Below, piece after piece: positions 16,041 through 44,990 of a stretch of 64,000 bases of DNA (position 1 is its first letter; each line of letters starts with the position of its first letter). Both the position numbers and the translations under genes were made by a program. The DNA lies in NCBI RefSeq assembly GCF_023746595.1, contig NZ_CP080572.1, positions 1,472,530-1,536,529 of the forward strand. Reading direction: 5' to 3'. Source of the stretch: Thermococcus argininiproducens (GTDB taxonomy: Archaea > Methanobacteriota_B > Thermococci > Thermococcales > Thermococcaceae). The notes beneath the pieces were generated by a model that saw only the letters and a program-made list of their open reading frames with translations, ran no database searches and had not been told where the DNA came from.

Positions 16041-16223
16041 ATGGAAATTGAGGAATACCTCATTGTCGTTGGACTGCTTTTGATACTTGGCTTCTTTATT
16101 TACCCGAGTGAAACCATATCTAAGACTTTCTGTGAAGGAAGCTTTGGAAACATTGGAAATTATGAAATAAGCATTCGAGAAGGGTTTCTAAAAGTTTATC
16201 ATAAAGGCGAAGAGGTATTCACT
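16041..16223 (+). pseudogene. 5' part of a small membrane-protein gene split by a TnpB element
   Basis: The first 61 codons of a membrane protein: an N-terminal hydrophobic helix (IVVGLLLILGFFIYP) and a beta-rich middle (ISIREGFLKVYHKGEEVFT). The host sequence ends exactly at 16223, where the element begins with CTGACCTCC; the frame runs a few codons into the element before stopping at 16244. Joining to 17682 restores the frame (see 17682-17855). It is unknown whether the 67-residue truncated product is stable. Confidence 0.85.
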
Positions 16224-17681
16224 CTGACCTCCTCCCCGTCCTAAAGGGCGAGGGTTCTAGCGAGTTAACCCCCTCGCCATGGGTGGGAAGGTTTGAGGGG
16301 TTTCATTCAGACCCAACATAAAGCGGGTTTTCAACCCCTCTGGGAGGGTCTTCCCCCAATTACCCCTACCCACCGTTAAACCCAGCAGGCTCGGGGTTAT
16401 CTTTTCAACAACCTTCTTTAAAATATTGAAAGCCCCAACCAAATCAGCATTCATTACAAGCCCCTCCGCGGGACACTTAAATAATCCGCGAACAAAACGG
16501 GCCCCGTCATGGAGCTTCCCGCAGAAGGGACAAAACTTTGAAGTAAAAGCTTCATCTACAACCACAACACTAATACCAAACTCTTCAGCGACTTCAGTCA
16601 AGCGTTTAATAACAGTGTTGAAACGCCACACGTGGGAAAGAATGAAATTCTGCTTTTTGCCCTTTTCAGAATTCCTCGCAATTCCCTTTGGATAGCCAAC
16701 CACAATCCGTGAAACTCCAAGGGAATAAAGTTTCTCGACAGTTTGCCTGACTGCAGTGTTAATGTAGTGCTTTGCCTGTAATTTGGCATTCTCATGCATT
16801 TTTCTGAGTTTTCTGCTCTTTTTACTTCCACTCTTGTTGAGTTTTGACTGATACTCTGCAATCCGCTTTTGCCAGTAGAAAGCTATGCTCTTGAGCGGTC
16901 CTCCGTTAACTAAGAACGATTCACCATTCTCAAGGTAAACGGCCATTAAGTTATTCACTCCTAAATCAATTCCGGCTGAAAGGTTCCCTAAAGATTGTCT
17001 TGGGAGTTTAATCCAGCCATTCTCAGTTAACTTCTCCTCAACTTTTGAAATGGTGACGTGAGCGTACCACTTCCGCTTAACAGGATTGTAAATTAATTCT
17101 AGCCTTCCCTGTTTACCCTTCAAGTGAATCCTACCCTTGAATTGAACTTCAAGCCTTTTAAATCTTCCAAGGCCTTGGAGGATTAATTTATTCCCTTCAA
17201 TTTTATATTGGGTGTTCCTGAGGATTATGAGTGGTTTTCCCTCCCTTTTATAGCCTGGTGGGTTTGGCTTGAGCCACTTTGGCAATTCCTTACTCTTCTT
17301 CATTCTGATTTGCGAGAAGAAATCCCGCCAGGCTTCAGCATTCTTCCTGCAAACTTGCTGAACTGTTGCAGAACCGATTTCACGCTTGTATTTTTCATAA
17401 ACGATTTTTTCAGCCTTGTTAAAGTCCACAATTTCGTGGTTAAAGAATTGTTGCCTGCGAAGATAATTCACTTCATTCCAAACTTTTGCACTAGCCTCGG
17501 CTAACTCGAAGAGTGCTTTTTCTTGCTCTTTTGAAGGTTGAAGTTTTAGTGTTACTGTCCTCTTCATGTCAAGTTATAGTATGATTCTTAGGTTTTAAAA
17601 AAGTAACGCTTTTCTGCTCGAAGACTTGCTTTAGAATTCCTGCATCCCCGCTCCAAAGGCCGAGGCTTTTGGAAGAAAAAT
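16224..17681 (-). mobile_element. IS200/IS605-type element carrying only tnpB (family B)
   Basis: The element is 1458 bp, with ends set by comparison with the relic at 44580-44990 and by the interrupted gene. The right end on the minus strand finishes in GGAGGTCAG (16232-16224); the left end begins after TTTAC (minus strand, 17686-17682). It has no target duplication and no tnpA. A strong GGCGAGGG/CCCTCGCC hairpin (about 16247-16277) marks the structured right end expected to encode the omega RNA. Ends and target differ from family A. Confidence 0.9.
16257..17567 (-). CDS. tnpB: TnpB RNA-guided endonuclease with atypical RuvC-II
   Basis: A 436-residue TnpB. RuvC-I D201 lies in GIDLGVNN and RuvC-III D375 in NADLVGAFNIL. 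The RuvC-II block reads IVVGYPKGIAR, with no acidic residue where the other TnpB here has E291; the nearest invariant acid is E339 in VVVDEAFTSK. The zinc ribbon has CPFC (346/349) and C365 but the fourth position is not Cys (CPAEG). An N-terminal HTH-like region (residues 1-60) is typical. The start is ATG 17567. The C-terminal tail overlaps the right-end RNA-coding segment. Whether it can still cut DNA is open. Confidence 0.92.
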   Translation of the reverse strand: MKRTVTLKLQPSKEQEKALFELAEASAKVWNEVNYLRRQQFFNHEIVDFNKAEKIVYEKYKREIGSATVQQVCRKNAEAWRDFFSQIRMKKSKELPKWLKPNPPGYKREGKPLIILRNTQYKIEGNKLILQGLGRFKRLEVQFKGRIHLKGKQGRLELIYNPVKRKWYAHVTISKVEEKLTENGWIKLPRQSLGNLSAGIDLGVNNLMAVYLENGESFLVNGGPLKSIAFYWQKRIAEYQSKLNKSGSKKSRKLRKMHENAKLQAKHYINTAVRQTVEKLYSLGVSRIVVGYPKGIARNSEKGKKQNFILSHVWRFNTVIKRLTEVAEEFGISVVVVDEAFTSKFCPFCGKLHDGARFVRGLFKCPAEGLVMNADLVGAFNILKKVVEKITPSLLGLTVGRGNWGKTLPEGLKTRFMLGLNETPQTFPPMARGLTR

Positions 17682-17855
17682 GTAAAAGAGGAACAAATCT
17701 TCGTTAAAAAAGCAAACATAAAATACTCATATTCTAAGGGGTGTTATACGATCATGATAAGAGAAAAACCTGAAAAAGCGCTGTATCTCTTTATTGGAGG
17801 CGTAATTTTAATTGGGATTGCGTTTTACTATATAGCGTTTCTGCGTTATCGATAA
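17682..17855 (+). pseudogene. 3' part of the membrane-protein gene split by the TnpB element
   Basis: Codons 62-118 of the interrupted gene: VKEEQIFVKKANIKYS then a C-terminal transmembrane helix (LYLFIGGVILIGIAFYYIAF) and RYR-stop. The frame is continuous with 16041-16223 if 16224-17681 is removed, giving a 118-residue protein with one helix at each end. An internal ATG at 17754 with GGGGTG upstream could express a 33-residue remnant. The stop overlaps the convergent DUF167 gene by 10 nt. The family is not recognised. Confidence 0.8.
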
Positions 17856-44579: not shown

Positions 44580-44990
44580 CTGATCTCCTCTCTGTCTTGA
44601 AGGGCGAGGACTCCTCTCGGGGTCATAACCCTCACCCTTCAAGGCTTTCATCGGTTTGCGGACCCATCACATACTCTCCTTGCGAGTTTCGGTTCGGCCC
44701 GAGGGCCGGGTCTTCGGCTCGTTACCCCTACCGCAAAGCGGTTCGGGGTTATCGTCCCAGAGGACACTCCTTAAAGTTCTAAACCACTTGAAGGAGATCC
44801 CTAAAAGGACGCCTAACGGCGTCATCTCCCATGCAGGGGAACACGAGTGAAACCCCTTTAAACGAGTTGTTTTTGAATGGTTTCTCCGGGCCTTATTACG
44901 TTGATAAGTTTAAAAAAGTTTCAGTAGTTTAAAGGTTTCCTTGGACAGTTCACCCACATCCCCACCCTAAAGAACGAGGCTTTTATGAGA
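44580..44990 (-). mobile_element. 411-bp relic of a family-B TnpB element
   Basis: Both ends match the element at 16224-17681. The right end is CTGATCTCC (44580-44588) with GAAGGGCGAGG, against CTGACCTCC and AAAGGGCGAGG. The left end has CATCCCCACCC...GAACGAGGCTTTT and is followed by GTAAA (44991), the same target. The minus strand near the right end still encodes a recognisable TnpB tail (MKALKGEGYDPERSPRPSRQ) but upstream frames are broken by stops. G/C-rich hairpins (CCGCAAAGCGG region, 44731-44741) from the omega-RNA part remain. The rest of tnpB is deleted. Confidence 0.85.

What the first reader, a model, noticed from the sequence alone, without database searches (positions are those of the whole stretch)
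16041..17855. TnpB element sits precisely inside a small membrane-protein gene; computed removal restores a 118-residue frame
The host frame runs 61 codons to 16223 and resumes in phase at 17682 for 57 codons to a stop. The restored product has one transmembrane helix at each end and a beta-rich middle. The boundaries were set by comparing ends with the relic at 44580, and they coincide with the frame join. Absence of a target duplication is as expected for IS605 peel-and-paste. Two points are notable: the insertion is probably recent, because both halves stay intact, and TnpA-mediated precise excision would revert it.
Basis: seen in the sequence. Interest (0 to 1): 0.72.

Follow-up and report, generated by a model that had tools for sequence, protein, structure and literature searches.

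The report
TnpB element seamlessly interrupting archaeal gene
A small jumping element carrying an RNA-guided DNA-cutting enzyme has inserted cleanly, with no duplicated target bases, into a conserved but uncharacterised membrane-protein gene of a Thermococcales archaeon; at least three other genes of the same genome are split in the same way, so this is a well-documented example of a known kind of insertion.

Summary
A 1,458-bp tnpB-only IS200/IS605-type element (16224-17681, tnpB on the minus strand) splits a 118-codon membrane-protein gene. Uninterrupted homologues spanning the join occur in 22 other genomes of the family. In the two closest, 640 nt of DNA aligns across the join without gaps. 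The ends carry an IS608-type signature: TTAC target, AAAG guide beside the left hairpin, TCAG right cleavage site, GAAC right guide. TTTAC plus the adjacent host sequence is what the element's own predicted guide RNA would recognise in the empty allele.

(1) Reversion: the only TnpA in this genome belongs to a different element (about 38% identical to the cognate TnpA of sister species), and TnpB would tend to cut and refill an emptied site. (2) The case is not singular: of seven copies with defined ends, four split a conserved gene in frame and a fifth lies at a gene's last codons. TnpB copies differ by dS 0.4-0.9 (dN/dS about 0.1), while the sister species, about dS 0.2 away, has the sites empty: the elements are older than their present sites. 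New member of a known kind; host-gene function unknown.

The parts
16041..16223 (+). 5' half of the interrupted host gene (61 codons, N-terminal helix plus part of the beta domain)
   Evidence: Joined frame; homologues 1-118 in relatives
17682..17855 (+). 3' half of the host gene (57 codons plus stop, rest of beta domain plus C-terminal helix)
   Evidence: Joined frame; gap-free DNA alignment to G079 and G078 across the join
16224..17681 (-). tnpB-only IS200/IS605-type element, 1,458 bp, left end at 17681, right end at 16224
   Evidence: Ends shared with other copies; absent from the empty site in relatives
16257..17567 (-). tnpB, 436 aa, RNA-guided endonuclease family; RuvC motifs IDLG, VDEAFTS and NADLVGAFN present
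   Evidence: NF040570 186.5 bits against cut-off 100; PF01385 and PF07282; dN/dS about 0.1 among copies
17682..17685 (-). TTAC target site (in TTTTAC) 5' of the left end; expected TAM
   Evidence: TTAC at the left end of nearly all copies whose left end was resolved; present in the empty site of G079 and G078
17646..17669 (-). left end: AAAG guide tetranucleotide (17669-17666) followed by hairpin CCTCGGCCTTTGGAGCGGGG
   Evidence: IS608 left guide = AAAG (PMC5934647)
16224..16257 (-). right end: GAAC guide tetranucleotide, hairpin CCTCGCCCTTTAGGACGGGG, terminal TCAG cleavage site
   Evidence: IS608 right guide/cleavage site = GAAT/TCAA (PMC5934647)
16208..16402 (-). predicted omegaRNA: 3' part of tnpB and right end, followed by about 16 nt of guide (16223-16208, AGTGAATACCTCTTCG), antisense to the host gene
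   Evidence: Sub-threshold Rfam matches HgcC and sot0042; folding z -2.85; position as described for ISDra2 in PMC8612924
44580..44990 (-). short relic or non-autonomous derivative with the same kind of ends, preceded by TTTAC

Best explanation
[quoted passage not shown] TnpA was supplied in trans, either by a cognate enzyme no longer in this genome or by the resident TnpA of another element. TnpB and its omegaRNA, whose guide is read out of the right end into the host gene, would recognise the restored empty site (TTTAC + AGTGAATACC...) and cut it, which favours keeping or copying back the element. Shown: exact insertion, empty sites in relatives, IS608-like end signals, TnpB under purifying selection, no cognate TnpA detected in the genome. 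Inferred: trans-mobilisation, TnpB activity, recency, loss of host-gene function.
For: Uninterrupted homologues; gap-free empty sites; shared ends with TTAC/AAAG and TCAG/GAAC compared with IS608; TnpB family assignment; dN/dS 0.09-0.13 among copies; TnpA+TnpB elements with the same ends in G076 and G078; three further split genes with whole orthologues in G079; no TAM+guide site with fewer than 2 mismatches elsewhere in the genome.
Against: No cognate TnpA in the genome, so movement in trans is inferred. One of the four usual zinc-ribbon cysteines is missing (KCPAEG) in this copy and similarly in the others, so nuclease activity is not guaranteed. Expression of the omegaRNA is not shown. Only one genome per species was available, so within-species polymorphism was not tested.
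Confidence: 0.9

Rival explanations
1. The split genes are still functional because the element is removed at RNA level (an IStron-like arrangement) or because the polyploid cell keeps some chromosomes with the empty site.
For: Four split genes keep intact halves and the pooled own-branch N:S is 23:59, no worse than in the sister species, 21:32.
Against: No group I intron among Rfam matches. In this locus tnpB is antisense to the host gene while in L003, L006 and L007 it is co-oriented, so one strand-specific splicing signal cannot serve all. Recent insertion explains the same data.
Confidence: 0.06
2. The two halves are separate genes or a gene fission, and the element simply lies between them.
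For: The 5' half can be read as a 67-aa ORF ending inside the element.
Against: Every homologue not cut by a contig end is one frame of 117-120 aa; DNA aligns gap-free across the join.
Confidence: 0.01
3. The insertion is old and the host gene is a slowly decaying pseudogene.
For: The host gene has N:S 7:7 on this branch, weaker constraint than its neighbours phzF 8:27 and DUF167 1:7.
Against: The sister branch of the same gene shows 4:5 and the outgroup 11:12, so the gene is always loosely constrained; no stop or frameshift; the neutral N fraction of about 0.76 gives P about 0.03; site empty in G079 and G078.
Confidence: 0.05

Closest known systems
IS608 (Helicobacter pylori), IS200/IS605 family
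   Same: TTAC target on the left flank, no duplication, AAAG left guide beside the left hairpin, right-end guide/cleavage pair of the same layout (PMC5934647)
   Different: Window element carries no tnpA; right cleavage site TCAG with guide GAAC instead of TCAA with GAAT
ISDra2 TnpB/reRNA (Deinococcus radiodurans)
   Same: TnpB with right-end RNA whose guide is the flanking host DNA, and a cleavage motif equal to the transposition target (PMC8612924)
   Different: TAM expected to be TTTAC/TTAC, not TTGAT; no adjacent tnpA; one zinc-ribbon cysteine missing; activity not shown here
TnpA+TnpB IS605-type elements of sister species (G076, G078)
   Same: Same TnpB type (about 75% DNA identity), same kind of left and right ends, TTAC target
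   Different: They carry a Y1 TnpA between left end and tnpB; the window element does not
Haloarchaeal sotRNA/omegaRNA (RF02656)
   Same: RNA overlapping the 3' end of tnpB (PMC12558985)
   Different: The match here is well below the family's gathering score (34 against 88 bits)

Membership tests
IS200/IS605 family element (tnpB-only) | Insertion 3' of a short fixed target without duplication | tested here: met
   TTTAC|, gap-free empty sites in G079 and G078
IS200/IS605 family element (tnpB-only) | Subterminal hairpins with guide tetranucleotides that match the cleavage sites | tested here: met
   TTAC/AAAG at left, TCAG/GAAC at right; recur across copies, with a shorter variant right end in L003, L005 and L006
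IS200/IS605 family element (tnpB-only) | Y1 (HUH) TnpA in the element (autonomous members only) | tested here: not met
   Absent; tnpB-only copies are an accepted subgroup, but autonomy cannot be claimed. One TnpA elsewhere in the genome, of another element
TnpB RNA-guided endonuclease | Profile match above curated cut-off | tested here: met
   NF040570 186.5 against 100 bits
TnpB RNA-guided endonuclease | RuvC D-E-D residues | tested here: met
   IDLG, VDEAFTS, NADLVGAFN by motif inspection in all eight copies
TnpB RNA-guided endonuclease | Four-cysteine zinc ribbon (common, not universal) | tested here: not met
   CPFC present; second pair reads KCPAEG (CPAGG, CPVEG, CHREG in other copies), one Cys missing
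TnpB RNA-guided endonuclease | omegaRNA with guide from the flank | tested here: inconclusive
   Sub-threshold Rfam matches, folding z -2.85; no expression data
TnpB RNA-guided endonuclease | RNA-guided cleavage of the empty site | not testable with these tools
   Needs biochemistry; only the matching TAM and target in relatives' empty sites were shown
IStron | Group I intron in the element | tested here: not met
   No intron family among Rfam matches at E up to 1, or up to 0.001 for all copies

The most novel reading that the evidence does not exclude
The split genes of this genome remain under selection after insertion because they are restored at DNA level in some chromosome copies of a polyploid cell (excision balanced by TnpB-driven refilling) or at RNA level, making these elements reversible gene switches.
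Probability: 0.06. Interest if true: 0.75.

Novelty: new member of a known kind. Interest (0 to 1): 0.33.

Why it matters
It gives base-exact filled and empty sites for a TnpB element family in a Thermococcales archaeon, with target motif, predicted guide and target all readable, and shows that the TnpB copies are older than the sites they occupy. The four split genes with whole orthologues in a sister species are a ready natural test of whether TnpB-only elements move in trans and whether TnpB keeps them at their donor site. The host protein itself is a conserved Thermococcaceae membrane protein with no assigned family.

Tried and rejected
Host-gene function: no Pfam or NCBIfam match, no convincing solved relative by sequence, and no significant Foldseek match for a good model of a homologue (pLDDT 86; best E 0.009 with TM 0.27 to a ribosomal chain, taken as chance). 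A genome-contig scan with the single protein found nothing; with an alignment it gave four Thermococcus MAG homologues. IStron: no intron family. Self-targeting: no exact TAM+guide in the genome, nearest have 2 mismatches. Whether genus members without the host gene once had the insertion could not be tested: the neighbouring phzF was not found there either. Bacterial promoter/terminator scan not informative for an archaeon. A literature search for HgcC together with TnpB gave nothing.

Full report
Check of the observation. The window lies in a 1.95-Mb one-contig genome. Joining 16041-16223 to 17682-17855 yields a 118-codon frame. A family-wide search with the joined protein found homologues spanning the join, uninterrupted, in 22 other genomes: 91% identical in G079, 85% in G078, about 68-70% in five more of the genus and 37-55% in others; two further genomes gave only weak partial matches. 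The own genome gives only residues 1-63 and 60-118, on the two sides of the element. An alignment of 15 members shows invariant residues on both sides of the join. DNA of G079 and G078 aligns over 640 nt without a gap across the join.

Anatomy. On the minus strand the order is TTTTAC | left end, tnpB, right end | host. The left end has AAAG directly before its hairpin, the right end has GAAC directly before its hairpin, and the element stops at TCAG. The same signals recur in other copies in this genome and its relatives. In IS608 the corresponding signals are TTAC, AAAG, GAAT and TCAA (PMC5934647). The change of TCAA to TCAG together with GAAT to GAAC looks like a compensated guide/cleavage pair; that reading is my inference. 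Three copies (L003, L005, L006) carry a right end shortened by about 35 nt.

TnpB. The 436-aa protein passes the RNA-guided TnpB model and keeps the three RuvC motifs, but the second half of the zinc ribbon reads KCPAEG in place of a CxxC, and similar departures occur in the other copies. Copies in this genome differ at dS 0.37-0.90 with dN/dS 0.09-0.13, so selection has kept TnpB intact. The RNA expected at the right end is supported by sub-threshold Rfam matches to HgcC and sot0042 and by folding better than shuffles (z -2.85); this is modest evidence.

Age and generality. Joining flanks at the same signals restores whole genes in three more cases: a cupin-like protein (L003), a 440-aa protein that I read as an NSUN/RsmB-type methyltransferase (L006), and a membrane protein (L007); these names are by eye, not tested against a family library. 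In L004 the insertion lies at the last codons of a 256-aa gene. G079 has whole orthologues of all three, gap-free at the predicted site. The pooled own-branch count of nonsynonymous to synonymous changes is 23:59, against 21:32 on the sister branch; the neutral expectation is about 76% nonsynonymous. So these genes were under normal constraint for most of the branch. Synonymous distance to G079 in neighbouring genes is about 0.2, less than among the TnpB copies. The elements thus predate their current sites. Conservative hopping, loss by precise excision in G079, or recent arrival of already diverged copies all fit; they were not separated here.

Movement. The genome holds one Y1 TnpA, next to a different TnpB; it is 33-38% identical to the TnpA of the type found with this TnpB in G076 and G078 (and a similar one in G083). 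Eight of 13 genus genomes have no detected TnpA although all 13 carry matches to the element. Movement of the tnpB-only copies in trans is therefore likely but unproven, and reversion in the present strain is doubtful. TnpB is proposed to cut the donor joint and lead to refilling from the sister copy (PMC8612924; PMC11870625). The empty site in G079 keeps TTTAC and the first 12 guide bases, with a mismatch at position 13.

Host protein. No known family or fold was found. Its function, and the cost of its loss, remain open.

Verdict. A correct and precise observation of a known kind of event, strengthened here by empty sites and by three parallel cases in the same genome. The claim of ready reversion is not supported.

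Noticed in passing
L003, L006, L007 and L004 (own genome): Other copies of the same element split or abut genes seamlessly: a cupin-like protein, a 440-aa putative methyltransferase, a membrane protein, and the last codons of a 256-aa gene.
   Followed up: yes
G078:C1:255288-257370 (L041, L073, L103): In a sister species a TnpA+TnpB element sits at the very 3' end of the orthologue of the gene that is split in L007: the same gene was hit twice at different positions.
   Followed up: partly
L042, L045, L050, L051, L060, L063: Some relatives' TnpB elements carry, between left end and tnpB, a reading frame with a motif like SVDDEVEKKFRELVEKKYGKIRGALGVAVTEA (ribbon-helix-helix-like by eye) in place of TnpA.
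   Followed up: no
window 44580-44990; G000:C1:147386-147789, 415288-415692, 130865-131271: About 400-bp non-autonomous derivatives with both ends of this element family; the window one is preceded by TTTAC.
   Followed up: partly
L001-L008 TnpB proteins: All copies lack the fourth usual zinc-ribbon cysteine (KCPAEG and variants), yet the copies compared are under purifying selection.
   Followed up: partly
L003, L005, L006 (and L008): Right ends shortened by about 35 nt with a different terminal hairpin (CCTCCCCACCTTAAAAAACGGGGAGG), so two right-end/omegaRNA 3' architectures coexist in one genome.
   Followed up: no
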